A stretch of DNA of 64,000 bases from Manis javanica (lineage: Eukaryota; Chordata; Mammalia; Pholidota; Manidae). Under the pieces are notes generated by a model that saw only the letters and a program-made list of their open reading frames with translations, was not told where the DNA came from and made no database searches. The first letter of the stretch is position 1. Each line of letters starts with the position of its first letter. A program made the translations under genes and the position numbers. Of the stretch, positions 10,931-53,279 are shown piece by piece. Where the stretch lies: contig NC_133169.1 of NCBI RefSeq assembly GCF_040802235.1, positions 46,073,034-46,137,033 on the forward strand. The letters run 5' to 3'.

Positions 10931-11963
10931 GATTTCCTAACCTGTATGGTACAGATATATATTCTATATGGCCAAAATGACTTCATATTTTTCTCTTATG
11001 GGGAGACAAGCCATCTGAAAGTGATACCATCAAATAGTTTAAATAGTATCAAATAATGATACCATTCAACAACTGCAACTCCACCAGGCTGCTAATGGGA
11101 AGAGCAAGTCAGGGGCATGTACTTAGTTGAAATAGTTGCAAAATCTCAATACTTCCAAAAAACGGTGAGTTAACTAAAGCATTAACTCAAGAGGTAAAAC
11201 CAGAGAATAACTGTATTCTCCAGACCCTCTCTCTATTAAAACTGACTGGCTTCTTGACACCCCCTTCGTAAGTTATGCTTTGGTGGTCTCATATCTTACT
11301 TTGTAGTGTAGGAGTAACTGGGACTTAGTACTTATTGCCTTGAAGTCTCAGCCCAAGCTGATGTCCCATTTTTACAACCATTACAAATGCTTGAAAGGAA
11401 TAGAATACAAAGAACAAAAAAGCCCACTCTTATAAAACAATCAGCAAACACAGTTTGATGTATGCATATATCAAGTTCTCTCCAGAACAAAGAGCAGCTT
11501 TGCTTCTCTAAGGTTTGTATTTTTCTTAGGATGGTCATGAATGTTCTCAAGATGCCATAGGCTAGAAAGGTAAAGGGAGGTGCTGCTCTCAAGGCAGAAA
11601 TAGAATGGGTGGAGTTAATGAACTGGGAAGGACTGTGTTAAGAACTCACATAAGCCACCTTCCAGGGCTCCCAGGCTTACGGTGATGAGTCCTGGAGGCT
11701 GTGTCAGCAGAGGGGTCAAGAACTAGTGAATATAGATTATCTTCTTTAATGTGACCCCATTTGTAACCACATAATAATGTGTGGCTTGGAAAATGGGAAT
11801 TATGTACCAAAAAGTACAAAAAAGAAAATGAAAATGAAAATCACCTGTAATCCACCACCCTGAGCATGTGTGTGTATGAAAATTTGGTACAACACTTTGA
11901 CAATATATCTCGAGCATTTCCCTTATTTAATATCTTCCAAAACATATATATTAGTTTTTTTTT

Positions 11964-12286
11964 GAGAGGGCATCTCTCATATTTAATGATCAAATGGTTG
12001 TTAACAACAATAAAATTCAGTATAGGGGGGTCAATGCTCAATGTACAATCATTAATCCATCTCAAGCCTAACTCTCATCAGTCTCCAATCTTCTGAAGCA
12101 TAACGAACAAGTTCTTACACGGTGAACGAATTCTTACATAGTGAATAAATTCTTACATGGTGAACAGTACAAGGGCATTCATCACAGAAACTTTCGGTTT
12201 TGATCACGCATTATGAACTATAAAAAATCAGGTCAAACATGAATATTCATTTGATTTTTATACTTGATTTATATGTTGATCCCACA
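11964..12286 (-). mobile_element. U3-R-like LTR segment at the end of L1-A
   Basis: Sense strand starts TGTGGGATC just after a short purine tract ('ggagaaa') and runs about 323 nt to the poly(A) tail. A purine tract followed by TG is the usual polypurine tract/U3 boundary of a retrovirus, and ending in poly(A) without a U5 fits a polyadenylated retroviral transcript. The poly(A) signal is the ATTAAA variant at 11982-11987; L1-B has AATAAA. Calling it an LTR is inference from order and these signals. Confidence 0.6.
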
Positions 12287-12541
12287 TTTCTCCGTTTATT
12301 ATTATTATTTTTATTTTTAATAAAATGCTGAAGTGGTAGGTAGATGCAAGATAAAGGTAGAAAACATAGTTTAGTGTTGTAGGAGAGCAATTGTAGATGA
12401 TCAGGTGTGTGCCTGTAGACTATGTGTTAATTCAAGCTAGACAAGGGCAATAAAACATCCACGGATGCAGAATATTTCTCTCAAAGCAGGGGGAATGAGG
12501 TTCCGAGCCTCACCTCTGTTGATCCCCAATTTCTCACCTGA

Positions 12542-12630
12542 TGGCCCCCCTGCGACTGTGCCTGTCTTAGGTTGTTCCTCCCTTGAGGAATCCTACCCGT
12601 CTCTGGCTAACCAGTCATCTTCCGGGGCCA
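12542..12630 (-). promoter_or_regulatory. Type D retrovirus CTE-like RNA export hairpin (L1-A copy)
   Basis: Sense strand reads TGGCCCC at 12630 down to GGGGGCCA at 12542, which pair as a terminal stem. TGACTG pairs with CAGTCG inside it and TTCCTC with GAGGAA at the apex around an AAGG loop. Between the stems are AGACGGGTAGGA on one side and AACCTAAGACAGG on the other. These are the two sides of the internal loop that binds NXF1/TAP in the Mason-Pfizer-type constitutive transport element. Only one half-element is present. L1-A has a substitution (GGGTAGGA) relative to L1-B (GGGTAAGA). It lies between env and the LTR, as in type D viruses. Confidence 0.7.
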
Positions 12631-13028
12631 TACAGGGAAATGTAAAGTTGGTAAGTGAGAGAGAAGCCATATTGTTTGAAAAGGTTAGCTTTTTACTTCT
12701 TTGCAGATTTATGCCCTGTGGCTTCTATGCCCAGCACTTGTCTCAAGGTATCTTTACCACCTGGAGGAATTATGATACTCGGTAAATTCAATGAGGCACG
12801 AATTCTATTTAAGGGTTGTAATTAGGAAGGAAGAAGAAAAGCTATAGAGGTAGCATATGGAAGAAAACATGGGAGGATTGATTATTTCTTTGACATATCT
12901 TCTTGTAGAGTACCTTAAGTATGTATAGGTTTTAAACTATCAACTAACTTGCGCACACATATTAACATGACAGGAATACGGTGACATAAAAAAAGCAAAT
13001 CTATAATTACCAGCCATCTCCAGTGAAG

Positions 13029-13472
13029 CTAAGAAAACGATTTAGGCACCCTAGGCATTTGTGAAAATTTCTCTGTGATATGATCGATATTGGCCAACTG
13101 TACTTGAACAGTCTGAGAAAAATCAGACAAATTAAAGCAGCCCATTTCTGGGATCTGTTCACCTCCCATATGTTCTTTTAACCATAGATAGTCTATAGTC
13201 ATAAGATTTTGGAGTGCTACAACTTGCACCCCTCCCAACTCCTCGTTGAGTTCCAACAGTATAGATCCGGTCAAATTCGTTGTCTCACTGTATGCACATG
13301 CCAGCCTAGACATCTCCCCATCTCCCTCCTCATTCCTATGGCAAGTCCAGGAAATGGTGGGGTGGACGCAGCCATGACCGCAGCATCGCCCGGATCCCTG
13401 TGGTGGCTTTTTGATGATCATCCCCCGGCACGAGTCCTCCAGAGAGTGCTGATGCCGGAAGCTCCTCCTCAT
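13029..13472 (-). pseudogene. Retroviral env transmembrane-subunit fragment in L1-A 3' UTR
   Basis: A 147-codon open frame whose central part has the layout of a retroviral transmembrane subunit: a heptad-rich helix containing LLELNEELGGVQ, an ALQN motif followed by a YLWLKEH segment, then a disulfide-loop region ending CFNLSD. In this copy the first loop cysteine is replaced by glycine (GGEQIPEMGC), and the usual paired cysteine is a single one. After the loop comes a membrane-proximal region ending PRVPKSFS before a stop. The surface subunit, signal peptide and membrane anchor are absent from this frame. It is a fragment with no evident start context, read in the same sense as the L1, and probably untranslated. 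Not a functional envelope. Confidence 0.75.
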
Positions 13473-13626
13473 ATCGTATCTTAGTTCATTTTCTGGGTAT
13501 CCAAGCTAGGCCTTGATCTTCTGCATAGAAACAAACAGACCCTTTGCCCACACTTTGACATGCCCTCTATACCGCTGTGCAGAACTCCTTGGAGGTCAGC
13601 ACACAGTAACTGCTTTTTTTTTTTTT

Positions 13627-13772
13627 ATTAAGAGAAAGGAATATTATCAGAAAAGAGTACCTCCATAGCTGATCATCTGACACCCTTTAAGTGATCAACA
13701 TTAAGGATATTTAAAACATGCGTTGATCTTTGATTTACCAATAGTTTTATCCTATCAAGGAGTAATCCCCCT
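13627..13772 (-). other. Piece of about 146 bp between two A-tracts in L1-A
   Basis: Sense: lies between the L1 3' UTR tail (plus-strand CTTT/T tract 13773-13803) and a second A-tract (T-run 13614-13626). Origin unrecognised. The same piece with the same flanking tracts is in L1-B at 22102-22250. A-tracts on both sides look like successive 3' transduction or template-switch events. Confidence 0.65.
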
Positions 13773-14144
13773 TTTCTTTCTTTCTTTCTTTCTTTTTTTT
13801 TTTAATCTTTAATCTACACTTACATGAAGAGTACTATGTTTACTATGCTCTCCCCTATATCAGGTCCCCCCTAAAAACCACATTACGGATACTGTCCATC
13901 AGCTTAGCAAAATGTTGTAGAATCCCTACTTGTCCTCTCTGTGTTGTGCAGCCCACCCTCCCCTTTCTCCCTCCTCCCCATAAATGCTAACCTTAATACC
14001 CACCTTCTTCTTCCACCCACTTATCCCTCCCTGCCGACCCATCCTCCCCAGTTCCCTTCCCTTTGGTACCTGTTAGTCCATTTTTGGGTTCTGTAATTCC
14101 GCTGCTGTTTTGTTCCTTCAGTTTTTCCTTTGTTCTTATACTCC
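13773..14144 (-). other. Conventional L1 3' UTR of L1-A with A-rich tail
   Basis: Follows the expected ORF2 stop at about 14145. Sense order: 'gaacaaaacagcagcgg', a G-rich polypurine tract (C-rich plus strand 13965-14060), 'gacaagtagggattct', 'tgatatagggg', then the tail of A and GAAA repeats at 13773-13803. This corresponds point for point to the end of L1-C at 56340-56636, where the element stops. Confidence 0.8.
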
Positions 14145-17100
14145 TCAGATGAGTGAAATCATTTGGTATTTCTCTTTCTCCGCTTGGCTTATTTCACTGA
14201 ACATAATACTCTCCAGCTCCACCCATGTTGCTGCAAATGGTTGGATTTTTCCACTTCTTATGGCTGAGTAGTATTACATTGTGTATATGAACCACATCTT
14301 CTTTATCCATTCATTTACCGATGGACATTCAGGTTGCTTCCAATTCTTGACTATTGTAAATAGTGCTGCCATAAACATAGGGGTGCATCTGTCTTTCTCA
14401 AACTTGATTGCTAGGTTCTTAGGGTAAATTCCTAAGAGTGGAATTCCTGGGTCAAATGGTAGGTCTGTTTTGAGCATTTTGATGAACCTCCAAACTGCTT
14501 TCCACAATGGTTGAACTAATTTACATTCCCACCAGGAGTGTAGGAGGGTTCCCCTTTCTCCACAGCCTCGCCAACATTTGTTGTTGTTTGTCTTTTGGAT
14601 GGCACCTATCCTTACTGGTGTGAGGTGATACCTCATTGTAGTTTTAATTTGCATTTCTCTGATAATGTGGAGCATCTTTTCATGTGCCTCTTGGCCATCT
14701 GTATCTTTTTTAGAGAACTGTCTGTTCAGTTCCTCTGCCCATTTTTTAATTGGGTTATTGTTTTTTGTTTGTTGAGGCATGTGAGCTCTTTATATATTCT
14801 GGACGTCAAGCCTTTATCAGATCTGTCATTTTCAAATATATTCTCCCATACTGTAGGGTTCCTTTTTGTTCTATTGATGGTGTCTTTCACTGTACAGAAG
14901 CTTTTCAGCTTAATGTAGTCCCATGTGCTCATTTTTGCTGTTGTTCTCCTTGCCCGGGAAGATATGTTCAAGAAGAGGTCACTCATGTTTATGTCTAAGA
15001 GGTTTTTGCCTATGTTTTTTTCCAAGAGTTTAATGGTTTCATGACTTACATTCAGGTCTTTGATCCATTTTGAGTTTACCTTTTTATATGGGGTTAGACA
15101 ATGGTCCAGTTTCATTCTCTTACATGTAGCTGTCCAGTTTTGCCAACACCATCTGTTGAAGAGACTGTCATTTTGCCATTGTATGTCCATGGCTCCTTTA
15201 TCAAATATTAATTGACCATATATGTTTGGGTTAATGTCTGGAGTCTCTAATCTGTTCCACTGGTCTGTGGCTCTGTTCTTGAGCCAGTACCAAATTGTCT
15301 TGATTACTATGGCTTTGTAGTAGAGCTTGAAGTTGGGGAGTGAGATCCCCCCTACTTTATTCTTCTTTTTCAGGATTGCTTTGGCTATTTGGGGTCTTTG
15401 GTGTTTCCATATGAATTTTTGAATTATATTATTCCAATTCATTGAAAAATATTGCTGGTAATTTGAGAGGGATTGCATCAAATCTGTATATTGCTTTGGG
15501 AAGGATGGCCATTTTGACGATATTAATTCTTTCTAGCCATGAGCATGGGATGAGTTTCCATTTATTAGTGTCTCCTTTAATTTCTCTTAAGAGTGACTTG
15601 TAGTTTTCAGAGTATAAGTCTTTCACTTCTTTGGTTAGGTTTATTCCTAGGTATTTTATTCTTTTTGATGCAATGGTGAATGGAATTGTTTTCCTGATTT
15701 CTCTTTCTATTGGTTCATTGTTAGTGTATAGGAAAGCTACAGAATTCTCTGTGTTAATTTTGTATCCTGCAACTTTGCTGTATTCCGATATCAGTTCTAG
15801 TAGTTTTGGAGTGGAGTCTTTAGGGTTTTTTATGTACAGTATCATATCATCTGCAAATAGTGACAGTTTAACTTCTTCTTTACCAATCTGGATTCCTTGT
15901 ATTTCTTTGTTTTGTCTGATTGCCATGGCTAGGACCTCCAGTACTATGTTAAGTAACACTGGGGAGAGTGGGCATCCCTGTCTGGTTCCCCATCTCAGAG
16001 GAAATGCTTTCAGCTACTCGCTGTTCAGTATAATGCTGGCTGTGGGTTTATCATATTTGGCCTTAATTATGTTGAGGTACTTGGCATCTATTCCCATTTT
16101 GCTGAGAGTTTTTATCATGAATGGATGTTGAATTTTGTCAAATGCTTTTTCAGCATCTATGGAGATGATCATGTGGTTTTTGTCTTTCTTTTTGTTGATG
16201 TGGTGGATGATGTTGATGGATTTTCGAATGTTGTGACATCCTTGCATCCCTGGGATGAATCCCACTTGGTCATGGTGTATAATCCTTTTGATACACTGTT
16301 GAATTGTGTTTGCTAATATTTTATTGAGTATTTTTGCATCTACATTCATCAGGGTTATTGGTCTGTAATTTTCTTTTTTGGTGGGTTTTTGCATGGTTTC
16401 GGTATTAGGGTGATGTTGGCTTCATAGAATGAGTTTGGGAGTATTCCCTCTTCTTCTGTTTTGTGGAACACTTTAAGGAGAATGGGTATTATGCCTTCTC
16501 TGTGTGTCTGATAAAATTCCGAGGTAAATCCGACCGACCCCCGGGGTTTTGTTCTTGGGTAGTTTTTTGATTACCATTTCAATTTCTTTGCTTGTAATTG
16601 GTTTGTTTAACTTTTGTGTTTCTTCTTTGGTCGGTCTTGGGAGGTTGTATTTTTCTAGGAAATTGTCCATTTCTTCTAGGTTTTCCAGCTTGTTGGCATA
16701 TAGGTTTTAATAGTTTTTAATAATTCTTTGTATTTCTGTGGAGTCTGTGATGACTTTTTCATTCACATTTCTGATTATGTTGATTTGTGTTGATTCACTT
16801 TTTCTCTTAATAAGTTGGGCTAGAGGCTCATCTATTTTGTTTATTCTCTCAAAGAACCTGCTCTTGGATTCATTGATTTTTGCTATTGTTTTATTCTTCT
16901 CAATTTTGTTTATTTCTTCTCTGATCTTTATTATGTCCCTCCTTATGCTGACTTTAGACCTCATTTGTTCTTCTTTTTCCAGTTTCGATAATTGTGATGT
17001 TAGACTATTCATTTGGGATTGTTCTTCCTTCTTCAAGTGTGCCTGAATTGCTATATTCTTTCCTCTTAAGACTGCTTTCGCTGCGTCCCACAGAAGTTGG

Positions 17101-17974
17101 GGCTTAGTGTTCTGTTGTCATTTGTTTCTATATATTCCTTGATCTCTATTTTGATTTGTTCTTTGATCCATTGATTATTTAGTAGCATGTTGTTAAGCCT
17201 CCATGTGTTTGTGAGCCTTTTTGTTTTCTTTGTAGAATTTATTTCTACTTTTATACCTTTGTGGTCTGAAAAATTGGTTGGTAGAATTTCAATATTTTGG
17301 AGTTTACTGAGGCTCTTTTTGTGAGCTAGTATGTGGTCTATTCTGGAGAATGTTTCATGTGCACTTGAGAAGAATGCATATCCTGTTGCTTTTGGATGTA
17401 GAGTTCTATAGATGTCTATTAGGTCCATCTGTTCTAGGGTGTAGTTCAGTGCCTGTGTGTCCTTACTTATTTTCTGCCCGGTGGATCTATCCTTTGGGGT
17501 GAGTGGTGTGTTGAAGTCTCCTACAATGAATGCATTGCAGTCTATTTCCCTCTTTAGTTCTGTTAGTATTTGCTTCACATATGCTGGTGCTCCTGTATTG
17601 GGTGCATATATATTTAGAATGGTTATATCCTCTTGTTGGACTGAGCCCTTTATCATTATGTAGTATCCTTCTTTATCTCTTGTTACTTTCTTTGTTTTGA
17701 AGTCTATGTTGTCTGATATTAGTACTGCAACCCCTGCTTTCTTCTCACTGTTGTTTGCCTGAAATATGTTTTTCCATCCCTTGGCTTTTAGTCTATGCTT
17801 GTCTTTGTGTTTAAGGTGAGTTTCTTGTAAGCAGCATATAGATGGGTCTTGCTTTTTTATCCATTCTATTACTCTGTGTCTTTTGATTGGTGCATTAAGT
17901 CCATTTACATTTAGGGTGACTATTGAGAGATATGTACTTATTGCTATTGCAGGCTTTAGATTCGTGGTTACCAA
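14145..17974 (-). pseudogene. L1-A ORF2 (endonuclease-reverse transcriptase), broken
   Basis: Encodes remnants of the L1 ORF2 protein, an endonuclease plus reverse transcriptase acting on its own RNA in target-primed reverse transcription. The endonuclease part (frame 17066-17974) begins [17 protein letters not shown] and shows QETHL, GDFN and SDHKG motifs. RT remnants include [11 protein letters not shown] in 15429-15959; the cysteine-rich C-terminus [18 protein letters not shown] is in 14274-14780. The frame changes at roughly 17050, 16700, 16460, 16000, 15450 and 14760, and a stop at 14274 replaces the glutamate after IYTM. It therefore cannot make a full protein. Inter-ORF spacing to ORF1 is about 220 nt. 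Confidence 0.92.
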
Positions 17975-18196
17975 AGGTTCAAGGTTAGCTTCTTTAGTAT
18001 CTTACTGCCTAACTTAGCTCGCTTATCGAGATGTTATATACACTGTCTGGAGATTCTTTTCTTCTCTCCCTTCTTATTCCTCCTCCTCCCTTCTTCATAT
18101 GTTGTGTTTTGTTCTGTGCTATTTTTAGGAGTGCTCCCATCTAGAGTAGTCCCTGTAGGATGCCCTGTACAGGTGGTTTGTGGGAAGCAAAATCCC

Positions 18197-19056
18197 TCAG
18201 CTTTTGCTTGTCTGGTAATTGTTTAATCCCGCCATCATATTTAAATGATAGTCGTGCTGGATACAGTATCCTTCCTTCAAGGCCTTCTGTTTCATTGCTT
18301 TAAGTATATCATGCCATTCTCTTCTGGCCTGTAGGGTTTCTGTTGAGAAGTCTGATGTTAGCCTGATGGGTTTTCCTTTACAGGTGACCTTTTTCTCTAT
18401 AGATGCCTTTAAAACTCTTTCCTTGTCCTTGATCCTTGCCATTTCAATTACTATGTGTCTTGGTGTTGTCCTCCTTGGATCCTTTCTGTTGGGGGTTCTG
18501 TGTAATTCCATGGTCTGTTCGATTATTTCCTCCCCCAGTTTGGGGAAGTTTTCAGCAATTATTTCTTCAAAGAGACTTTCTATCCCTTTTCCTCTTTCTT
18601 CTTCTTCTGGTACCCCTATAATAGGAATATTATTCCTTTTGGTTTGGTCACATAGTTCTCTTAGTGTTGTTTCATTCCTGGAGATCCTTTTATCTCTCTC
18701 TATGTCAGCTTCTATACGTTCCTGCTCTCTGGCTTCTATTCCTTCAACGGCCTCTTGCATCTTATCCATTCTGCTTATAAATCCTTCCAGGGATTGTTTC
18801 ACTTCTGTGATCTCCTTCCTGACATCTGTGATCTCCCTCTGGACTTCATCCCATTGCTCTTGCATTTTTCTCTGCATCTCCTCCCATTGCTCTTGCATTT
18901 TTCTTTGCATCTCTGTCAGCATGTTCATGATTTTTATTTTGAATTCTTTTTCAGGAGAACTGGTTAGGTCTGTCCCCTTCTCAGGTGTTGTCTCTGTGAT
19001 CTTTGTCTGCCTGTATTTTGTCTTTTCATGGTGATAGAGAAAGTTTGCAGACCTGG
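18197..19056 (-). pseudogene. L1-A ORF1 (RNA-binding coiled-coil protein), frameshifted at both ends
   Basis: ORF1p is the trimeric RNA-binding chaperone of the L1 particle. The frame carries a coiled coil with tandem MQRKMQEQW units, an RRM-type middle (KRNNIPIIGVPEEE) and a C-terminal domain with RRTTPRHIVIEMA and REWHDILKAMKQK. Compared with L1-B, one base is missing near the start, so the normal MKRQ start is out of frame; the open frame extends artificially upstream to 19069. Near the C-terminus a further frameshift after MKQKALKE replaces the normal end. Confidence 0.9.
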
Positions 19057-19479
19057 TACAAGTGACCACTGGAAGGTCTTCCCTTATTGTTGGTTTGTGG
19101 CCTACCTCTCCTGGGAGAATAGCGACCCCTAGTGGCTTATGCTTGTCAGCTGTGCGCAGAGAGGGCTTCTACTACCTGCCCGTTTGCTATGGAGTTTATC
19201 TCCGCTGTCGCTGTGGGCGTGGCCTGGCTGGGGCTGCTCCTCCAAAGTGGTGGAGCCCCATTGGAGGGGGAGCGGCCGGGAGGCTATTTTTCTCCATAAG
19301 GGGCCTCTGTGCTCCCTGTTGCCCAGGGGGTTAGAGTGCCCAGAGATCCCCAGATTCCCTACCTCTGGTCTAAGTGTCCTGTCTTGCCCCTTTAAGACTT
19401 TCAAAAAGCACTCTCCAAACCAAAACAACAACAGCAACAATGAGAGAGGGAACAGGAAAAAAAAAAAATAAAGGAAAAA

Positions 19480-20200
19480 ACACGCGATTTTTTTTTCTTT
19501 CCCTCAGGCGCCGATCCCAGGCACCCGCTCACTGGTCCTGCTGCCCTGCCTCCCTAGCACCGGGGTCCCTGTCCCTTCATGGCTTCCGAAAAGCACCCGC
19601 CCACCAGTCCCACAGGGATAATCACGTGATATTCTTTTTCTTCAGGCGCCGGTCCCAGGCACCCACTCACTGGTCCTGCTGCTCTGCCTCCCTAGCCCCG
19701 GGATCCCTGTCCCTTTAAGGCTTCCAAAAAGCACTCGCCAAGAAGAGAAAAAAAAAGGGGAAAACTCGCGATTTCCTCCGTCCTCAGGCACCGGTCTCAG
19801 GCACCCGCACACCGGTCCTGCAGGGAAAAACGCATGATATTCTTTGTCCTCAGGTGCTGGTCCCAGGCACCCGCTCAACAGTCCTGCTGCTCTGCCTCCC
19901 TAGCACCAGGGTCCCTGTCCCTTTAAGGCTTCCAAAAAGCACTCGCCAAAAAGAGAAAAAAAAAGGGGAAAAGTGCGCGATTTCCTCCGTCCTCAAAAGC
20001 CGGTCTCAGGCATCCGCCCACCGGTCCCGTAGGGAAAAATGCACAATCTTTGTCCTCAGGCGCCAGTCCCAGGCACCGCTCACCGTTTCCGCCGCCCTGC
20101 CTCCCTATCAACGGGGTCCCTGTCCCTTTAAGGCTTCCAAAAAGCACTCGCCAAAAAAAAAAAAAAAAAAACCGCTCCGGTTTCTTTCCACCCGCCGGGA
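19480..20200 (-). repeat. L1-A 5' UTR monomers, about 210 bp each
   Basis: On the plus strand 'ggcttccaaaaagcactcgcc' variants recur at about 19580, 19717, 19927 and 20129, and 'gatttcctccgtcctca' at 19768 and 19978 (210 bp apart). Each unit has 'cggtcccaggcacccgctca', 'cctgcctccctagcaccggg' and an A-rich linker. About three to four units, GC- and CpG-rich. By analogy with rodent L1s these may be promoter monomers; that role is inferred. Confidence 0.82.
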
Positions 20201-20384
20201 GCCGTGGGTAAGGGCACTCGGGTCCCGCCGGGCCGGGGTTTGTATCTTACCCCCTTTAAAGGCACTGGGTTCTTGCAGGTGTGGATGTGGTCTGGATGTT
20301 GTCCTGTATCCTCTGGTCTCTATTTTAGGAAGAGTTTTGTTTATTATATTTTCATAGCTCTATGTGTTTTTGGGAGGAGATTTT

Positions 20385-20417
20385 CACTGCTCTACTCACG
20401 CCGCCATCTTGGCTCCC
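20385..20417 (-). promoter_or_regulatory. L1-A transcription start region with YY1-like site
   Basis: Sense start 'gggagccaagatggcggc' contains the AAGATGGCGGC core recognised by YY1 at the +1 end of mammalian L1s. It lies at the exact 5' end of the element, followed by 'gtgagtagagcagtg'. YY1 binding is inferred from the known L1 arrangement. Confidence 0.7.
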
Positions 20418-20428
20418 ACATTACTTTT
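20413..20428. other. Left target-site duplication of L1-B
   Basis: 'ctcccacattactttt' here, running into the poly(T), is repeated at 29151-29166 directly after the 5' end of L1-B. The right copy is followed by AA, so the nick site is TTTT/AA, the L1 endonuclease consensus. The first bases (ctccc) overlap the 5' end of L1-A, so L1-B landed at the 5' boundary of an existing L1-A. Confidence 0.85.
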
Positions 20429-20446
20429 TTTTTTTTTTTTTTTTTT

Positions 20447-20769
20447 GAGAGGGCATCTCTCATATTTATTGATCAAATGGTTGTTAACAACAATAAAATT
20501 CAGTATAGGGGGGTCAATGCTCAATGTACAATCATTAATCCATCTCAAGCCTAATTCTCGTCAGTCTCCAATCTTCTGAAGCATAATGAACAAGTTCTTA
20601 CATGGTGAACGAATTCTTACAGAGTGAATAAATTCTTACATGGTGAACAGTACAAGCGCATTCATCACAGAAACTTTCGGTTTTGATCATGCAATATGAC
20701 CTATAAACCATCAGGTCAAATATGAATATTCATTTCATTTTTGTACTTGATTTATATGTTGATCCCACA
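20447..20769 (-). mobile_element. U3-R-like LTR segment at the end of L1-B
   Basis: Sense begins TGTGGGATCAACAT after the purine stretch 'aggagaaa', about 323 nt before the poly(A) tail. It contains short direct repeats of 'gtaagaat' type ('caccatgtaagaattt' and 'caccatgtaagaactt' near 20590-20660). No U5 follows; it ends in poly(A). This fits the 3' terminus of a polyadenylated retroviral RNA. ERV family not identified. Confidence 0.62.
20465..20470 (-). terminator. AATAAA poly(A) signal of L1-B
   Basis: Sense 'gatcaataaatatgagag' places AATAAA about 18-20 nt upstream of the poly(A) tail, the normal cleavage distance. It comes from the retroviral segment rather than from the L1 body. L1-A carries ATTAAA at the same place. 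Confidence 0.85.
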
Positions 20770-21032
20770 TTTCTCCTATTATTATTATTATTTTTATTTT
20801 TAATAAAATGCTGAAGTGGTAGGTAGATGCAAGATAAAGGTAGAAAACATAGTTTAGTGCCGTAAGAAGGCAAATGTAGATGATCAGATGATCAGGTGTG
20901 TGCCTATGGACTAAGTATTAATCCAGGCTAGACAAGGGCAGCAAGGCATCCACGGATGCAGAAGATTTCTCTCAAAGAAGGGGGGGTGAGGTTCTGAGCC
21001 TCACCTCTGTTGATCCCCAAATTCTCACCTGA

Positions 21033-21121
21033 TGGCCCCCCTGCGACTGTGCCTGTCTTAGGTTGTTCCTCCCTTGAGGAATCTTACCCGTCTCTGGCTA
21101 ACCAGTCATCTTCCGGGGCCA
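21033..21121 (-). promoter_or_regulatory. Type D retrovirus CTE-like RNA export hairpin (L1-B copy)
   Basis: Same fold as in L1-A: terminal stem TGGCCCC/GGGGGCCA, inner stem TGACTG/CAGTCG, apical stem TTCCTC/GAGGAA with an AAGG loop, and internal-loop strands AGACGGGTAAGA and AACCTAAGACAGG. L1-B keeps GGGTAAGA, the form I recall for the NXF1/TAP-binding loop of Mason-Pfizer-type viruses. Position between env remnant and LTR segment matches the viral arrangement. One of the two half-elements of the viral CTE is present. Export activity is inferred. Confidence 0.75.
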
Positions 21122-21406
21122 TACAGGGAAATGTAAAGTTGGTAAGTGAGAGAGAAGCCATATTGTTTGCAAAGGTTAGCTTTTTACTTCTTTACAGATT
21201 TATGCCCTGTGGCTTCTATGCCCAGCACTTGTCTCGAGGTATCTTTACCACCTGGAGGAATTATGATACTTGGTAAATTCGATATGAGGCACGAATTCTA
21301 TTTAAGGTTTGTAATTAGGAAGGAAGAAGAAAAGCTATAGATGTAGCATATGAAGGAAACTTGGGAGGATTGATTATTTCTTTGACATATCTTCTTGTAT
21401 AATACC

Positions 21407-21960
21407 TTAAGTATGTATAGGTTTTAAACTACTAACTAATTTGCACACACATATTAACATAATAGGAATACGGTGACATAAACAAAGCAAATCTATAATT
21501 ACCAGCCATCTCCAGTGAAGCCAAGAAAACCATTTAGGAACCCTAGGCATTTGTGAAAATTTATCTATGATATGATGGATATTTTCCAACTGTACTTGAA
21601 CCATCAGACAAATTAAAGCAGCCCATTTCTGGGATCTGTTCACATCCCATATGTTCTTTTAACCATAGATAGTCTATAGTCATGAGATTTTGGGGTGCTA
21701 CAACTTGCACCCCTCCCAACTCCTGGTTGAGTTCCAACAGTACAGATCCAGTCAAATTCGTTGTCTCACTGTATGCACATGCCAGCCTAGACATCTCCCT
21801 CCTCCTTCTTATGGCAAGTCCAGGAGATGGTGGGCTGGATGCAGCCACAACCGCAGCATCGTCCGGATCCCTGTGGAGGCTTTTTGATGATCATCCCCCG
21901 GCACGAGTCCTCCAGAGAGTGCTGATGCCGGAAGCTCCTCCTCATATCGTATCTTAGTTC
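21407..21960 (-). pseudogene. Retroviral env transmembrane-subunit fragment in L1-B 3' UTR
   Basis: Same env fragment as in L1-A, split over two frames (21561-21848 and 21407-21643). The first frame has the LLELNQELGGVQ helix and a GCEQIPEMGCFNLSD loop, so the leading loop cysteine is present here though the cysteine pair is still single. A deletion of about a dozen bases near 21602 relative to L1-A shifts the frame. The second frame then gives a hydrophobic, tryptophan-flanked segment (WLHWRWLVIIDLLCLC) suggesting the membrane anchor, ending KPIHT before a stop. Broken and not expected to make an envelope protein. Confidence 0.75.
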
Positions 21961-22101
21961 ATTTTCTGGGTATCCAAGCTAGGCCTTGATCTTCTGCGTA
22001 GAAACAAACAGACCCTTTGCCCACACTTTGACATGCCCTCTATAACACTGTGCAGAACTCATTGGAGGTCAGCACACAGTAACTGCTTTTTTTTTTTTTT
22101 T

Positions 22102-22250
22102 AATTAAGAGAAAGGAATATTATCAGAAAAGAGTACCTCCATAGCTGATCATCTGACACCCTTTAAGTGATCAACATTAAGGATATTTAAAGCATGCGTT
22201 GATCTTTGATTTACCAATAGTTTTATCCTGTTAAGGAGTAATCCCCCTTT
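22102..22250 (-). other. Piece of about 149 bp between two A-tracts in L1-B
   Basis: Collinear with 13627-13772 of L1-A, bounded by the L1 tail (22251-22284) and a second A-tract (T-run 22087-22101). Sense ends 'cctttctcttaatt' before the second tract. Source not recognised. Confidence 0.65.
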
Positions 22251-22618
22251 TCTTTCTTTCTTTCTTTTTTTTTTAAATTTTTAATCTACACTTACCTGAA
22301 GAATACTATGTTTACTATGCTCTCCCCTATATCAGGTCCCCCCTAACAACCACATTACAGTTACTGTCCATCAGCTTAGCAAAATGTGGTAGAGTCACTA
22401 CTTGTCCTCTCTGTGTTGTGCAGCCCACCCTCCCCTTTCTCCCCCCCCCCCCTGCATGGTAATCTTAAAACCCCCCCTCTTCTTCCCCCCCCCCTTATCC
22501 CTCCCTGCCCACCCATCCTCCCCAGTTCCTTTCCCTTTGGTACCTGTTAGTCCATTTTTGGGTTCTGTAATTCTGCTGCTGTTTTGTTCCTTCAGTTTTT
22601 CCTTTGTTCCTATACTCC
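22251..22618 (-). other. Conventional L1 3' UTR of L1-B with A-rich tail
   Basis: Starts after the ORF2 stop at 22619-22621. Contains a strong G-run polypurine tract on the sense strand (C-runs at 22442-22453 and 22483-22495), as in other L1 3' UTRs, and ends in an A/GAAA tail. L1-C ends at the equivalent tail, so this was the ancestral terminus. Confidence 0.82.
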
Positions 22619-25600
22619 TCAGATGAGTGAAATCATTTGGTATTTCTCTTTCTCCGCTTGGCTTATTTCACTGAGCATAATACTCTCCAGCTCCATCCAT
22701 GTTGCTGCAAATGGTTGGATTTTTCCGCTTCTTATGGCTGAGTAGTATTCCATTGTGTATATGTACCACATCTTCTTTATCCATTCATCTACAGATGGAC
22801 ATTTAGGTTGCTTCCAATTCTTGGCTATTGTAAATAGTGCTGCGATAAACATAGGAGTGCATCTGTCTTTCTCAAACTTGATTGCTGCGTTCTTAGGGTA
22901 AATTCCTAGGAGTGGAATTCCTGGGTCAAATGGTAGGTCTGTTTTGAGCATTTTGATGCACCTCCATACTGCTTTCCACAATGGTTGAACTAATTTACAT
23001 TCCCACCAGCAGTGTAGGAGGGTTCCCCTTTCTCCACAGCCTCGCCAACATTTGTTGTTGTTTGTCTTTTGGATGGCAGCTATCCTTACTGGTGTGAGGT
23101 GATACCTCATTGTAGTTTTAATTTGCATTTCTCTGATAATTAGCGATGTGGAGCATCTTTTCATGTGTCTCTTGGCCATCTGTATTTCTTTTTTGGAGAA
23201 CTGTCTGTTCAGTTCCTCTGCCCATTTTTTAATTGGGTTATTTGTTTTTTGTTTGTTGAGGCGTGTGAGCTCTTTATATATTCTGGACGTCAAGCCTTTA
23301 TCAGATCTGTCATTTTCAAATATATTCTCCCATACTGTAGGGTTCCTTTTTGTTCTATTGATGGTGTCTTTCGCTGTACAGAAGCTTTTCAGCTTAATGT
23401 AGTCCCACTTGCTCATTTTTGCTGTTCTTTTCCTTGCCTGGGAGATATGTTCAAGAAGAGATCACTCATGTTTATGTCTAAGAGGTTTTTGCCTATGTTT
23501 TTTTCCAAGAGTTTAATGGTTTCGTGACTTACATTCAGGTCTTTGATCCATTTTGAGTTTACCTTTGTATATGGGGTTAGACAATGGTCCAGTTTCATTC
23601 TCCTACATGTAGCTGTCCAGTTTTGCTAGCACCATCTGTTGAAGAGACTGTCATTTTGCCATTGTATGTCCATGGCTCCTTTATCAAATATTAATTGACC
23701 ATATATGTTTGGGTTAATTTCTGGGGTCTCTAATCTGTTCCACTGGTCTGTGGCTCTGTTCTTGTGCCAGTACCAAATTGTCTTGATTACTATGGCTTTG
23801 TAGTAGAGCTTAAAGTTGGGGAGTGAGATACCCCCTGCTTTATTCTTCTTTTTCAGGATTGCTTTGGCTATTCGGGGTCTTTGGTGTTTCCATATGAATT
23901 TTTGAATTATTTGTTCCAATTCATTGAAGAATGTTGCTGGTAATTTGCGAGGGATTGCATCAAATTTGTACATTGCTTTCGGCAGGATGGCCATTTTGAC
24001 GATATTAATTCTTCCTAGCCATAAGTATGGGATGAGTTTCCATTTATTAGTGTTCCCTTTAATTTCTCTTAAGAGTGACTTGTAGTTTTCAGAGTATAAG
24101 TCTTTCACTTCCTTGGTTAGGTTTATTCCTAGGTATTTTATTCTTTTTGATGCAATGGTGAATGGAATTGTTTTCCTGATTTCTCTTTCTATTGATTCGT
24201 TGTTAGTGTATAGGAAAGCTACAGATTTCTGTGTGTTGATTTTGTATCCTGCAACTTTGCTGTATTCCGATATCAGTTCTAGTAGTTTTGGAGTGGAGTC
24301 TTTAGGGTTTTTTATGTACAGTATCATATCATCTGCAAATAGTGACAGTTTAACTTCTTCTTTACCAATCTGGATTCCTTGTATTTCTTTGTTTTGTCTG
24401 ATTGCCGTGGCTAGGACCTCCAGTACTATGTTAAATAACAGTGGGGAGAGTGGGCATCCCTGTCTGGTTCCCGATCTCAGTGGAAATGCTTTCAGCTTCT
24501 CGCTGTTCAGTATAATGCTGGCTGTGGGTTTATCATATATGGCCTTTATTTTGTTGAGGTACTTGCCCTCTATTCCCATTTTGCTGAGAGTTTTTATCAT
24601 GAATGGATGTTGAATTTTGTCAAATGCTTTTTCAGCATCTATGGAGATGATCATGTGGTTTTTGTCTTTCTTTTTGTTGATGTGGTGGATGATGTTGATG
24701 GATTTTCGAATGTTGTACCATCCTTGCATCCCTGGGATGAACCCCACTTGGTCATGGTGTATGATCCTTTTGATATACTGTTGAATTCTGTTTGCTAATA
24801 TTTTATTGAGTATTTTTGAATCTACATTCATCAGGGATATTGGTCTGTAATTTTCTTTTTTGGTGGGGTCTTTGCCTGGTTTTGGTATTAGGGTGGTGTT
24901 GGCTTCATAGAATGAGTTTGGGAGTATTCCCTCTTCTTCTATTTTGTGGAACACTTTAAGGAGAATGGGTATTATGTCTTCTCTGTGTGTCTGATAAAAT
25001 TCCGAGGTAAATCCGTCCGGCCCCGGGGTTTTGTTCTTGGGTAGTTTTTTGATTACTGTTTCAATTTCTTTGCTTGTAATTGGTTTGTTTAACTTTTGTG
25101 TTTCTTCCTTGGTCAGTCTTGGGAGGTTGTATTTTTCTAGGAAGTTGTCCATTTCTTCTAGGTTTTCCAGCTTGTTGGCATATAGGTTTTCATAGTAGTC
25201 TTTAATAATTCTTTGTATTTCTGTGGAGTCTGTCGTGATTTTTGCATTCTCATTTCTGATTATGTTGATTTGTGTTGACTCTCTTTTTCTCTTAATAAGT
25301 TGGGCTAGAGGCTTATCTATTTTGTTTATTTTCTCAAAGAACCAGCTCTTGGTTTCGTTGATTTTTGCTATTGTTTTATTCTTCTCAATTTTGTTTATTT
25401 CTTCTCTGATCTTTATTATGTCCCTCCTTCTGCTGACTTTAGGCCTCATTTGTTCTTCTTTTTCCAGTTTTAATAATTGTGATGTTAGACTATTCATTTG
25501 GGATTGTTCTTCCTTCTTCAAGTGTGCCTGGATTGCTATATATTTTCCTCTTAAGACTGCTTTCGCTGCATCCCACAGAAGTTGGGGCTTAGTGTTGTTG

Positions 25601-26460
25601 TTGTCATTTGTTTCTGTATATTCCTTGATCTCTATTTTGATTTGTTCATTGATCCATTGATTATTTAGTAGCATGTTGTTAAGCCTCCATGTGTTTGTGA
25701 GCCTTTTTGTTTTCTTTGTAAAATTTATTTCTACTTTCATACCTTTGTGGTCTGAAAAATTGGTTGGTAGAATTTCAATATTGTGGAATTTACTGAGGCT
25801 CTTTTTGTGAGCTAGTATGTGGTCTATTCTGGAGAATGTTCCATGTGCACTTGAGAAGAATGTATATCCTGTTGCTTTTGGATGTAAAGTTCTATAGATG
25901 TCTATTAGGTCCATCTGTTCTAGTGTGTTGTTCAGTGCCTGTGTGTCTTTACTTATTTTCTGCCTGGTGGATCTATCCTTTGGGGTGAGTGGTGTGTTGA
26001 AGTCTCCTACAATGAATGCATTGCAGTCTATTTCCCTCTTTAGTTCTGTTAGTATTTGCTTCACATATGCTGGTGCTCCTGTATTGGGTGCATATATATT
26101 TAGAATGGTTATATCCTCTTGTTGGACTGAGCCCTTTATCATTATGTAGTGGCCTTCTTTATCTCTTGTTACTTTCTTTGTTTTGAAGTCTATTTTGTCT
26201 GATATTAGAACTGCAACCCCTGCTTTCTTCTCACTGTTGTTTGCCTGAAATATGTTTTTCCATCCCTTGACTTTTAGTCTATGCTTATCTTTGGGTTTAA
26301 GGTGAGTTTCTTGTAAGCAGCATATAGATGGGTCTTGCTTTTTTATCCATTCTATTACTCTATGTCTTTTGATTGGTGCATTAAGTCCATTTACATTTAG
26401 GGTGACTATTGAAAGATATGTACTTATTGCCATTGCAGGCTTTAGATTCGTGGTTACCAA
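22619..26460 (-). pseudogene. L1-B ORF2 (endonuclease-reverse transcriptase), two lesions
   Basis: Encodes the L1 replication enzyme, about 1280 codons, close to the usual 1275. Residues 1-944 are open (23626-26460): an endonuclease with QETHL, GDFNTPL and SDHKG, then RT with the [11 protein letters not shown] catalytic motif near residue 700. After FNRWC a TAG at 23623-23625 replaces tryptophan (L1-A has TGG). About 60 codons later, near 23440, a one-base deletion shifts the frame; the rest (22619-23416) is open and holds the cysteine-rich domain [18 protein letters not shown] and the end KYQMISLI. The start is MVTTNLKP, 168 nt after ORF1. A truncated protein would keep endonuclease and RT but lose the C-terminal domain. 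Confidence 0.93.
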
Positions 26461-26628
26461 AGGTTCAAGGTTAGCTTCTTTAGTATCTTACTGCCTAACT
26501 TAGCTCGCTTATTGAGCTGTTATATACACTGTCTGGAGAGTCTTTTCTTCTCTCCCTTCTTATTCCTCCTCCTCCATTCTTCATATGTTGTGTGTTTTGT
26601 TCTGTGCTCTTTTTAGGGGTGCTCCCAT

Positions 26629-27519
26629 CTAGAGCAGTCCTTTTAGGATGCCCTGTAGAGGTGGTTTGTGGGAAGCAAATTCCCTCAGCTTTTGCTTGTC
26701 TGAGAATTGTTTGATCCCACCATCATATTTAAATGATAGTCGTGCTGGATACAGTATCCTTGGTTCAAGGCCCTTCTGTTTCATTGCATTAAGTATATCA
26801 TGCCATTCTCTTCTGGCCTGTAGGGTTTCTGTTGAGAAGTCTGATGTTAGCCTGATTGGTTTTCCTTTATAGGTGACCTTTTTCTCTCTAGCTGCCTTTA
26901 AAACTCTTTCCTTGTCCTTGATCCTTGCCATTTTAATTATTATGTGTCTTGGTGTTGTCCTCCTTGGATCCTTTCTGTTGGGGGTTCTGTATAATTCCAT
27001 GGTCTGTTCGATTATTTCCTCCCCCAGTTTGGGGAAGTTTTCAGCAATTATTTCTTCAAAGACACTTTCTATCCCTTTTTCTCTTCCTTCCTCTTCTGGT
27101 ATCCCTATAATACGAATGTTTTTCCTTTTGTATTGGTCACATATTTCTCTTAGTGTTGTTTCATTCCTGGAGATCCTTTTATCTCTCTCTATGTCAGCTT
27201 CTATACGTTCCTGTTCTCTGGCTTCTATTCCTTCAATGGCCTCTTGCATCTTATCCATTCTGCTTATAAATCCTTCCAGGGATTGTTTCACTTCTGTGAT
27301 CTCTTTCCTGACATCTGTGATCTCCTTCCGGACTTCATCCCACTGCTCTTGCATTTTTCTCTGCATCTCATCCCATTGCTCTTGCATTTTTTTCTGCATC
27401 TCTGTCAGCATGTTCATGATTTTTATTTTGAAGTCTTTTTCAGGAGGACTAGTTAGGTCTGTCTCCTTCTCAGGTGTTGTCTCTGTGATCTTTGTCTGCC
27501 TGTAGTTTTGCCTTTTCAT
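26629..27519 (-). CDS. L1-B ORF1 protein, intact open reading frame
   Basis: A complete 296-codon frame for L1 ORF1p, the RNA-binding trimer that coats L1 RNA in the cytoplasm. It begins MKRQNYRQTKITETTPEK. Residues about 35-85 form a coiled coil with repeated MQRKMQEQWDE and ITDVRKEITEVKQSLEG blocks. The RRM domain follows (KRKNIRIIGIPEEEG, about 130-205), then the C-terminal domain (RRTTPRHIIIKMARIKDKER, PIRLTSDFSTETLQARREW) and the end GILKGLL. Length is slightly below the 338 of human ORF1p, mainly in the N-terminal half. The start is fixed by the L1 consensus and by the upstream stop. No lesion seen, which suggests recent insertion; expression is unknown. Confidence 0.93.
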   Translation of the reverse strand: MKRQNYRQTKITETTPEKETDLTSPPEKDFKIKIMNMLTEMQKKMQEQWDEMQRKMQEQWDEVRKEITDVRKEITEVKQSLEGFISRMDKMQEAIEGIEAREQERIEADIERDKRISRNETTLREICDQYKRKNIRIIGIPEEEGREKGIESVFEEIIAENFPKLGEEIIEQTMELYRTPNRKDPRRTTPRHIIIKMARIKDKERVLKAAREKKVTYKGKPIRLTSDFSTETLQARREWHDILNAMKQKGLEPRILYPARLSFKYDGGIKQFSDKQKLREFASHKPPLQGILKGLL

Positions 27520-27989
27520 GGTGATAGAGATAGTTTGCAGAGCTGGTACAAGTGACCGCTGGAAGAGCTTCCCTTCTTGTTGGTTTGTAGCCTTTTCCTG
27601 GGAGAATAGCGACCTCTAGTGGCTTGTGCTGGGCAGCTGTGCGCAGACAGGGCTTCTGCTTCCTGCCCAGTTGCTTTGGGGTTTATCTCCGCTGTTGCTG
27701 TGGGCTTGGCCTGGCTGGGGCTGTTCCTCCAAAATGGTGGAGCCCCGTTGGAGGGGGAGCAGCCAGGAGACTATTTATCTCCATAAGGGGCCTCTGTGCT
27801 CCCTGCTGCCCAGGGGGTTAGAGTGCCCAGAGATCCCCAGATTCCCTGCCTCTGGTCTAAGTGACCTGTCCTGCCCCTTTAAGATTTCCAAAAAGCACTC
27901 TCCAAACCAAAACAACAACAGCAACAATGAGAGAGGGAACAGAAAGAAAGAGAAAAAAAAAAAAAAGGAAAAAACAAGCGATTTTTGTT

Positions 27990-28905
27990 TTTTTGGTTTT
28001 TTTTTTGTCCTCAGGTGCCGGTCCCAGGCACCCGCTCACTGGTCCTGCTGCCCTGTCTCCCTAGGACCAGGGTCCCTGTCCTTTCAAGGCTTCCAAAAAG
28101 CACCCACCCACCGGTCCCGCAGGGAAGGAACGCTCGATATTCTTTGTCCTCAGGCACTGGTCCCAGGCACCCGCTCACCAGTCCCGCCGCCCTGCCTCCC
28201 TAGCACCGGGGTCCCTGTCCCTTCAAGGCTTCCAAAAATCACTCGGCAAAAAGAGAGAAAAAAAGGGGAAAAACGCGCGATTTCTTCCGTCCTCAGGTGC
28301 TGGTCTCAGGCACCCACCCACCGGTCCCACAGGGAAAAATGCGGGATATTCTTTGTCCTCAGGTGCCGGTCCCAGGCACCCGCTCACCAGTCCCGCCGCC
28401 CTGCCTCCCTAGCACCGGGGTCCCTGTCCCTTTTAGGCTTCCAAAAAGCACTCGCAGAAAAGAGAAAAAAAAAAGGGGAAAAACGCGCGATTTCCTCTGT
28501 CCTCAAGTGCCGGTCTCAGGCACCCGCCCACCGGTCCCGCAGGGAAAAACGGGGGATATTCTTTGTCCTCAGGCGCCGGTCCCAGCCACCCGCTCACCAG
28601 TCCCGCCACCGTGCCTCCCTAGCACTGGGGTCCCCGTCCCTTCAAGGCTTCCAAAAAGCGCTCGCCAAAAAGAGAAAAAAAAAAAAAAAAAAAAAGGGGA
28701 AAAACGCGCGACCTCCTCCGTCCTCAGGCACCGGTCTCAGGCACCCGCCCCCTGGTCTCGCAGGGAGAAACGTGGGATATTCTTTGTCCTCCGGCGCTGT
28801 TCCCAGGCACCTCCTCACCGGTCCCGCCACCCTGCCTCCCCAGCAACGGGGGCCCGTCCCTCTAAGGCTTCCAAAAAGCGCTCGCCAAAAAAAAAAAACC
28901 GCTCC
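27990..28905 (-). repeat. L1-B 5' UTR monomers, about 210 bp each
   Basis: 'aggcttccaaaaagcac' or a close variant recurs on the plus strand at about 28087, 28227, 28435, 28650 and 28866, and 'gatttc.tc.gtcctca' at 28277, 28487 and 28706. Four to five units, each with a paired 'cggtctcaggcacccgccca' half and 'cggtcccaggcacccgctca' half. One more unit than L1-A. The arrangement resembles the monomeric promoters of rodent L1s, but the sequence is different. Confidence 0.85.
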
Positions 28906-29117
28906 GGTTTCTCTCCACCCGCCGGGAGCCGGGGTAGGGGCGCTCGGGTCCCGCCGGGCTGGGGCTTGTATCTTACCCCCTTCACAAGTCGCTGGGTTCT
29001 TGCAGGTGTGGATGTGGTCTGGATGTTGTCCTGTGTCCTGTGGTCTCTATTTTAGGAAGATTTTTCTTTGTTATATTTTCATAGCTCTATGTGTTTTTGG
29101 GAGGAGATTTCCACTGC

Positions 29118-29150
29118 TCTACTCACGCCGCCATCCTGGCTCCGCCCCCC
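29118..29150 (-). promoter_or_regulatory. L1-B transcription start region with YY1-like site
   Basis: Sense 'ggcggagccaggatggcggc' then 'gtgagtagagcagtgg'. The ATGGCGGC core is kept; AAGATGG is changed to AGGATGG relative to L1-A. A G-rich stretch (C-run 29144-29150) precedes it. Confidence 0.65.
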
Positions 29151-29166
29151 CTCCCACATTACTTTT
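29151..29166. other. Right target-site duplication of L1-B
   Basis: 'ctcccacattactttt' repeats 20413-20428 and is followed by AATATAG, giving the L1 endonuclease site TTTT/AA. Confidence 0.85.
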
Positions 29167-53230: not shown

Positions 53231-53279
53231 GAATAAAAATCTATGTGAATATTTATAATCACTTTACTCAGAATCAATA

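What the first reader, a model, noticed from the sequence alone, without database searches (positions are those of the whole stretch)
20425..22618. L1 lineage with a captured retroviral 3' end
Seen: L1-B (and L1-A at 11955-14144) has the usual L1 3' UTR with A-rich tail, then about 1.8 kb more: an env transmembrane fragment, a CTE-like hairpin, a purine tract followed by TGTGGGATC, AATAAA and poly(A). Related L1-C stops at the first tail. Known: read-through past a weak L1 poly(A) signal can transduce 3' flanking DNA. Inference: an L1 read into or template-switched onto ERV RNA, and the hybrid then amplified, since two separate insertions share it collinearly. A retroviral 3' end acting as the permanent 3' UTR of an L1 family would be unusual.
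Basis: partly seen in the sequence, partly recalled or inferred. Interest (0 to 1): 0.95.

Follow-up and report, generated by a model that had tools for sequence, protein, structure and literature searches.

The report
L1 family with captured retroviral tail
In what is very probably the Malayan pangolin genome, a large family of LINE-1 jumping genes carries the end of an ancient retrovirus as its own tail, and the part that looks like a viral RNA-export signal has changed far less than its neighbours, as if the jumping gene uses it.

Summary
L1-A and L1-B are separate full-length L1 insertions whose native 3' UTR and A-tract are followed by about 1.8 kb: a 144-nt segment of unknown origin, a second A-tract, env transmembrane (TM) sequence, a hairpin, a purine tract, U3 and R, ending at the retroviral poly(A) site. 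A related provirus in the same genome (integrase - env - hairpin - purine tract - U3 - R - U5) shows what these parts are. A 35-mer of the hairpin has 21,980 genome matches. All 30 loci found with an extension-only query, L1-B itself included, also carry L1 3' UTR and ORF2. The TM tree is a ladder, with both proviruses on one branch: one capture, then descent. Three old L1-linked copies have an open TM frame; in younger copies TM has drifted about as fast as the L1 3' UTR. The hairpin has 2 of 144 fixed differences against 41 of 272 in TM, though its private-mutation rate is not low. Most likely an L1 captured a betaretrovirus-like 3' end once and kept its poly(A) site and a CTE-like hairpin. 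The export function is inferred, not shown.

The parts
20425..29152 (-). L1-B, full-length L1 with the retroviral 3' extension
   Evidence: ORF1 and ORF2 domains, target-site duplication at 20415 and 29153
11955..20414 (-). L1-A, second full-length L1 with the same extension
   Evidence: 93.8% identical to L1-B over 8.3 kb
26629..27615 (-). L1-B ORF1
   Evidence: Transposase_22 4e-24 and Tnp_22_dsRBD 7.5e-21
23626..26487 (-). L1-B ORF2, main open piece (953 codons): endonuclease and reverse transcriptase
   Evidence: RVT_1 1.8e-46, Exo_endo_phos 8.3e-24
22619..23461 (-). L1-B ORF2, C-terminal open piece (280 codons); ORF2 is interrupted between the two pieces
   Evidence: frames
22280..22615 (-). 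native L1 3' UTR
   Evidence: aligned with L1-C, which stops here; found in 38 of 38 loci rows
22106..22249 (-). 144-nt segment of unknown origin between two A-tracts
   Evidence: in 37 of 38 loci rows, absent from L038; in old copies L071, L073, L075
21891..22086 (-). start of the retroviral part (env-derived, upstream of TM)
   Evidence: junction sequences
21561..21890 (-). decayed env TM sequence
   Evidence: ASLV TM 4jpr E 1.3e-6; open 176-codon counterparts in L071, L073, L075
20985..21150 (-). CTE-like hairpin with an internal loop holding AAGACA
   Evidence: folds; 87% identical in provirus L069; 2/144 fixed differences
20770..20777 (-). purine tract before U3
   Evidence: read from sequence; provirus L069 has its own at the same place
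20447..20769 (-). retroviral U3 and R, with AATAAA at 20465-20470, ending at the R poly(A) site
   Evidence: provirus L069 continues into U5 at this point
20425..20446 (-). A-tail of L1-B
12505..12659 (-). the same hairpin in L1-A
53272..56638 (+). L1-C, older related L1 without the extension
   Evidence: 83% identical, stops at its own A-tail

Best explanation
One L1 acquired, once, the 3' end of a betaretrovirus-like ERV (end of env, CTE-like hairpin, purine tract, U3, R) behind its own A-tail, and the composite became the 3' UTR of an L1 lineage with about 22,000 recognisable copies. Simplest route: an L1 inserted in sense into an ERV env gene, its transcripts ran past the weak L1 signal, were polyadenylated at the R site and retrotransposed. 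The env TM frame was open at first and then decayed. The hairpin and the sequence beside it were kept because they help the L1 RNA, most likely by NXF1-type nuclear export, together with the retroviral poly(A) site. Shown: structure, linkage, retroviral origin, abundance, low divergence of the hairpin. Supported: a single capture. Inferred: read-through, RNA export, benefit to L1.
For: Extension = TM, hairpin, purine tract, U3, R in the order of provirus L069, which has U5 where the L1 copies have poly(A) (the A-tail was seen in L1-A, L1-B and L038) and RNase H and integrase upstream, integrase nearest to 5cz1/5cz2/3jca/7usf, E 1e-23. 30 of 30 loci from an extension-only query carry L1 3' UTR and ORF2. 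21,980 hairpin and 11,147 L1 3'-UTR-end matches, controls 0. 16 of 37 exact 3'-UTR hits on the first 19 Mb of C1 have an exact hairpin hit 1244-1270 nt downstream. Ladder tree with the proviruses on one branch. Hairpin fixed differences 2/144 against TM 41/272, L1 3' UTR 25/181, 144-nt segment 12/117, with a singleton rate as high as any segment (0.0105 against 0.0072-0.0108). AAGACA kept in 36 of 38 rows; an AAGACA stem-loop of MLV is said to recruit NXF1 (PMC7551171, passage).
Against: The slow part is wider than the hairpin (14/407 from 21255 to 20760), and the random-placement test of the longest gap is weak (450 of 10,000). Hairpin against purine-tract side p 0.14 and against U3-R p 0.085. 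Only three old copies, chosen by TM score. Identities had already hinted at a slow hairpin before the test. No two-sided compensatory change seen, and paired and unpaired sites vary alike (76/3721 and 45/2158). L1-B's hairpin does not fold better than shuffles. Both proviruses have AAGACA altered. Restoring the native L1 export element to a synthetic human L1 did not raise retrotransposition (PMC3045867, passage).
Confidence: 0.7

Rival explanations
1. Passive passenger: the retroviral tail was captured once by read-through and is copied with the L1, but only its strong poly(A) site matters, or nothing does; the hairpin has no function in L1.
For: Most of the extension (TM, upstream env, 144-nt segment) drifts about as fast as the L1 3' UTR; TM frame decayed; no structure-level signal among copies.
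Against: Hairpin 2/144 fixed against 10-20% in TM, upstream env, segment and L1 3' UTR, without a low singleton rate.
Confidence: 0.22
2. Recombination: the low divergence of the 3' third reflects exchange or gene conversion between L1 lineages, which made tails more alike, not selection.
For: The slow part runs from about 21255 to the start of U3, wider than the hairpin; three old copies only.
Against: Within the slow part the hairpin is the lowest, and the stretch between TM and hairpin is intermediate (31/357), a gradient more than a breakpoint. Not tested by separate trees.
Confidence: 0.12
3. Template switching: during target-primed reverse transcription the enzyme started on polyadenylated ERV RNA and jumped to the A-tail of an L1 RNA, making the hybrid in one step; later history as in the best explanation.
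For: The joint lies exactly in the L1 A-tail in L1-A and 37 loci rows, and a 144-nt piece with its own A-run lies between, as chained jumps could leave.
Against: Nothing separates it from insertion plus read-through. PMC12584738 (passage) reports an L1 lying between env and 3' LTR of a pangolin gamma ERV, so the insertion route is physically plausible.
Confidence: 0.25

Closest known systems
SVA elements (SINE-R part from HERV-K; PMC7353768, passages)
   Same: An L1-mobilised element whose 3' end is the 3' end of a retrovirus followed by poly(A)
   Different: SVA is non-autonomous and made of hexamers, Alu-like part and VNTR, about 2,800 human copies; here an autonomous L1 with ORF1 and ORF2 bears the tail, with about 22,000 hairpin matches
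L1 3' transduction (general knowledge; mentioned in PMC6500023, passages)
   Same: Read-through past the L1 tail carries downstream DNA to new sites
   Different: Ordinary transductions mark small source families; here the piece became the lasting tail of a large lineage and is itself a retroviral 3' end
NXF1-binding element of the human L1 3' region (Lindtner et al. 2002, seen only as cited in PMC3045867)
   Same: RNA-export element proposed for L1 RNA
   Different: Native L1 sequence around the end of ORF2, not captured from a retrovirus
CTEs of MPMV and of recombinant HML-2 proviruses (PMC11379458, PMC3621094, PMC7551171; passages)
   Same: Structured element between env and 3' LTR of betaretroviruses with gamma-type env
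   Different: MPMV CTE has two internal loops and shown NXF1 binding; here one AAGACA loop in the predicted fold, no activity tested, and the carrier is an L1

Membership tests
LINE-1 (L1) | ORF1 with L1 RBD and dsRBD-like domains | tested here: met
   PF02994 4e-24, PF17490 7.5e-21
LINE-1 (L1) | ORF2 with endonuclease and reverse transcriptase | tested here: met
   PF03372 8.3e-24, PF00078 1.8e-46, though the ORF2 of L1-B is interrupted
LINE-1 (L1) | poly(A) tail and target-site duplication | tested here: met
   L1-B; none seen for L1-A
SVA | hexamer repeat, Alu-like part, VNTR, no ORFs | tested here: not met
   element carries ORF1 and ORF2
SVA | 3' end from env, U3 and R of an ERV | tested here: met
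   works like SVA in this respect
Betaretrovirus-like ERV (source of the tail) | pol of alpha/betaretroviral type upstream of the same env | tested here: met
   in relative L069/L074: RNase_H, Integrase_Zn, rve, integrase best matches 5cz1, 5cz2, 3jca, 7usf (recalled as MMTV). L074 and L069 are about 1.0 kb apart; the part between was not fetched
Betaretrovirus-like ERV (source of the tail) | the direct parent provirus | tested here: inconclusive
   only relatives seen, dS 0.79-1.08
Retroviral CTE | position between env and 3' LTR | tested here: met
   provirus L069
Retroviral CTE | stem with two symmetric NXF1-binding internal loops (MPMV type) | tested here: inconclusive
   one AAGACA loop in the fold of L1-A; L1-B's best fold differs
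Retroviral CTE | binds NXF1 and exports unspliced RNA | not testable with these tools
   needs the bench

The most novel reading that the evidence does not exclude
An autonomous L1 lineage took over a retroviral RNA-export element: by capturing a retroviral 3' end it replaced or backed up its own export and polyadenylation signals, became a very numerous and recently active L1 family, and kept the hairpin under purifying selection for millions of years while the attached env gene rotted.
Probability: 0.5. Interest if true: 0.9.

Novelty: new variant of a known kind. Interest (0 to 1): 0.8.

Why it matters
L1 machinery is known to copy and join foreign RNAs, but a retroviral 3' end as the lasting 3' UTR of an autonomous L1 family is not described in the titles and abstract starts that searches listed (capped listings, open-access papers only). 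With thousands of copies of different age it is a natural experiment on what an L1 3' UTR must do: RNA export, poly(A) choice and read-through can be tested by asking which captured parts selection kept, and by comparing L1s with and without them.

Tried and rejected
Rejected: tandem duplication (L1-A and L1-B 93.8% identical; L1-B sits in a 100/98-supported clade without L1-A; B has its own target-site duplication). Rejected: native L1 3' UTR (provirus with the same parts). Rejected as parent: the gamma ERVs with open env (78 scored of 7,002 candidates, 30 fetched as L039-L068): none has the extension as its own 3' end; L066 holds an apart copy in its flank and L062 a 51-nt match. Not supported: a protected TM reading frame in the L1 lineage: dN/dS among the open copies L070, L071, L073, L075 is 0.51-0.76 against 0.21 between the proviruses, and the copies were chosen by TM score, which biases this low. 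Revised: I first took L038, which lacks the 144-nt segment, for the original joint; L071, L073 and L075 carry it, so L038 more likely lost it. PF03708 gave no match and rang in no control either, so it says nothing. PF00552 gave 150 scored hits (of 2,335 candidates); reading the list by eye I saw none beside the large-frame TM hits. Rfam: nothing at gathering scores; chance-level hits only with E up to 5.

Left open: the pattern meant to count L1 3' ends joined to the 144-nt segment did not complete. ORF2 intactness of young copies was not surveyed. No other pangolin or carnivore genome was searched.

Full report
WHERE. The window is C14:46073034-46137033 of a genome of 2,559,957,944 bases in 63 contigs. 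That size, contig C19 of 141,798,549 bases and the drop to 6.25 Mb at C20 match the Malayan pangolin assembly of PMC11825179 (2.56 Gb, 19 chromosomes, scaffold NG50 141.80 Mb; passages). The name is an inference; the tool gives none.

ANATOMY. L1-A and L1-B lie head to tail on the minus strand, 93.8% identical over 8.3 kb. L1-B has ORF1 (26629-27615) and ORF2 in two open pieces (953 and 280 codons), so its ORF2 is interrupted; L1-A's ORF2 is more broken. Behind ORF2, in sense order: L1 3' UTR, A/GAAA tract, 144-nt segment, A-run, env-derived sequence, hairpin, purine tract, U3, R, A-tail. L1-B is flanked by CCCACATTACTTTT at 20415 and 29153. L1-C (83%) and an older L1 at 44025-46156 (74%) lack the extension.

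RETROVIRAL ORIGIN. The TM frame of L1-B matches the ASLV TM structures 4jpr and 5h9c (E 1.3e-6 and 1.5e-6) but no Pfam family. With the 64 TM residues printed as query the genome gave 150 scored hits of 21,969 candidates. I fetched 1.8 kb at the hit with the longest open frame (497 codons, C19): L069 has the end of env, the hairpin (87% over 149 nt), a purine tract, U3, R and then a U5; its 288-codon piece passes TLV_coat (24 bits, cut-off 22.5) and matches ASLV TM (7e-15) and syncytin-2 (6e-8). A 1.3-kb piece ending 1.0 kb upstream (L074) holds RNase H, integrase zinc-binding and integrase core domains. The integrase piece is nearest to 5cz1, 5cz2, 3jca and 7usf (E 1.4e-23 to 4.5e-23; recalled as MMTV), far above HTLV-2 and RSV. 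L072 (C5), fetched for its 282-codon frame, is a second such provirus piece: env and R like L069, hairpin 85%. So the order in the L1 tail is the 3' order of a betaretrovirus-like provirus, cut at the R poly(A) site. U3 of L069 aligns with the L1 U3-R only at the end of R (49 nt), and TM dS between the two proviruses and the old TM copies is 0.79-1.08: relatives, not the parent.

HOW MANY, AND JOINED TO WHAT. A hairpin 35-mer with up to 2 mismatches has 10,967 + 11,013 matches (control 0), some of which may be ERVs. A 35-mer at the end of the L1 3' UTR has 5,486 + 5,661 (control 0). Fewer matches for the more upstream mark is what 5' truncation would give (inference; the two marks may also differ in conservation). 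One search used extension sequence alone as query: 30 of 30 loci, one being L1-B itself, also carry L1 3' UTR and ORF2. The query (40 scored of 3,102 candidates) reached into the L1 3' UTR, so its loci are not independent proof. In all 38 fetched rows (two are L1-B itself) each piece is found, except the 144-nt segment in L038; in L036 the best U3-R hit lies elsewhere in the locus, and some pieces are partial. On the first 19.07 Mb of C1, 16 of 37 exact 3'-UTR hits have an exact hairpin hit 1244-1270 nt downstream on the same strand; both lists show exact matches only, so misses are expected.

HISTORY. The joints of L1-A and 37 loci rows were printed: L1 tail, A/GAAA tract, 144-nt segment, A-run, retroviral part; L014 and L018 have longer GAAA-type tracts, and only L038 lacks the segment. 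Of the 150 TM hits, 41 have an open frame of 175-176 codons. Four of these were fetched: L071, L073 and L075 are L1-linked, with L1 3' UTR, segment, open TM frame and hairpin; L070 is a lone retrocopy that ends behind the env stop with its own A-tail, inside an older L1. The TM tree (22 rows) is a ladder: L073, L075, L070, L071, L038, L034, then the rest partly unresolved, with both proviruses on one branch (100/99). End branches are 0.039 for L1-A, 0.0056 for L1-B, 0 for L003 and L008; at a recalled rate of 2.2e-9 per site and year about 18, 2.5 and 0 My. This is rough: TM only, and the open-frame copies were picked by TM score, which shortens their end branches. The family has been active recently.

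IS THE HAIRPIN KEPT? Old copies: L071, L073, L075. Young: L1-B, L002-L008, L010, L012, L017 (11 of 37 copies). Fixed differences: hairpin 2/144; between purine tract and hairpin 6/137; between hairpin and TM 31/357; TM 41/272; upstream env 32/161; 144-nt segment 12/117; L1 3' UTR 25/181; U3-R 12/147 (L073 only). Singletons per cell among 37 copies: hairpin 0.0105, L1 3' UTR 0.0108, the rest 0.0072-0.0095. Fixed-to-singleton tests of the hairpin: against TM p 5.5e-6, upstream env 1.4e-6, hairpin-TM stretch 3.8e-4, segment 0.003, L1 3' UTR 0.006, U3-R 0.085, purine-tract side 0.14 (seven comparisons, uncorrected). With L038 added: hairpin 1/137, TM 29/251. The limits came from the fold (20985-21125, widened to 21150, before any fixed difference was counted), but piecewise identities had already hinted at the result. 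Sliding counts: 14/407 from 21255 to 20760 against 101/695 from 22085 to 21256; the longest gap between fixed differences falls in the hairpin (85 nt), matched by 450 of 10,000 random placements. So a mutation cold spot is unlikely, the 3' part is slow, and the hairpin is its slowest piece; three old copies are few. Among copies I saw no two-sided compensatory change, and paired and unpaired sites vary alike (76/3721 and 45/2158; 1812 of 1859 cells paired), which is expected of dead copies but gives the structure no support.

MECHANISM. Simplest: sense insertion of an L1 in an ERV env, read-through, polyadenylation at R (inferred). Template switching would give the same joint. The hairpin lies where simple betaretroviruses with gamma-type env keep a CTE (PMC3621094, PMC11379458; passages). 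AAGACA stands in its internal loop in 36 of 38 rows; PMC7551171 says that an AAGACA stem-loop of MLV recruits NXF1 (passage). Human L1 is said to have its own NXF1-binding element near its 3' UTR (cited in PMC3045867), so an export signal could pay for an unspliced L1 RNA. In that paper restoring the native element to a synthetic L1 did not help, and both proviruses here have AAGACA altered: both count against a simple reading.

NOVELTY. Searches listed no paper whose title or abstract start describes this; most listings were capped, and nine further looks were at passages of papers only. PMC12584738 (Chinese pangolin ERVs; passages) reports one gamma ERV with an L1 between env and 3' LTR: another lineage and a single locus, but it shows that such an insertion occurs. 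Dfam and Repbase could not be searched, so the family may stand there under a name.

Noticed in passing
window:22106-22249: 144-nt segment of unknown origin between two A-tracts at the L1-ERV joint; in 37 of 38 loci rows and in old copies, so part of the early history.
   Followed up: partly
L070:208-940: Lone retrocopy with an open 176-codon env TM frame and its own A-tail behind the env stop, inside an older L1, flanked by near-identical AATAGARAGCCCAGA.
   Followed up: partly
window:1-2400: G+C-rich start of the window (50% in the first 2 kb) with several open frames of 130-263 codons and no Pfam match.
   Followed up: no
window:61011-61803: About 0.8 kb, 71-85% identical to sequence about 1 kb from env in many of the gamma ERV loci: probably a solo LTR.
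   Followed up: no
window:31956-32515: Olfactory-receptor-like frames on the minus strand, broken in two overlapping frames.
   Followed up: no
G000:C1 near 1.82, 4.50 and 23.48 Mb: Three inverted pairs of L1 3' ends, each 4,374 bases apart, in the list: looks like one duplicated segment.
   Followed up: no
L014 and L018: The A/GAAA tract at the L1-ERV joint has grown to several hundred and about 170 extra bases.
   Followed up: no
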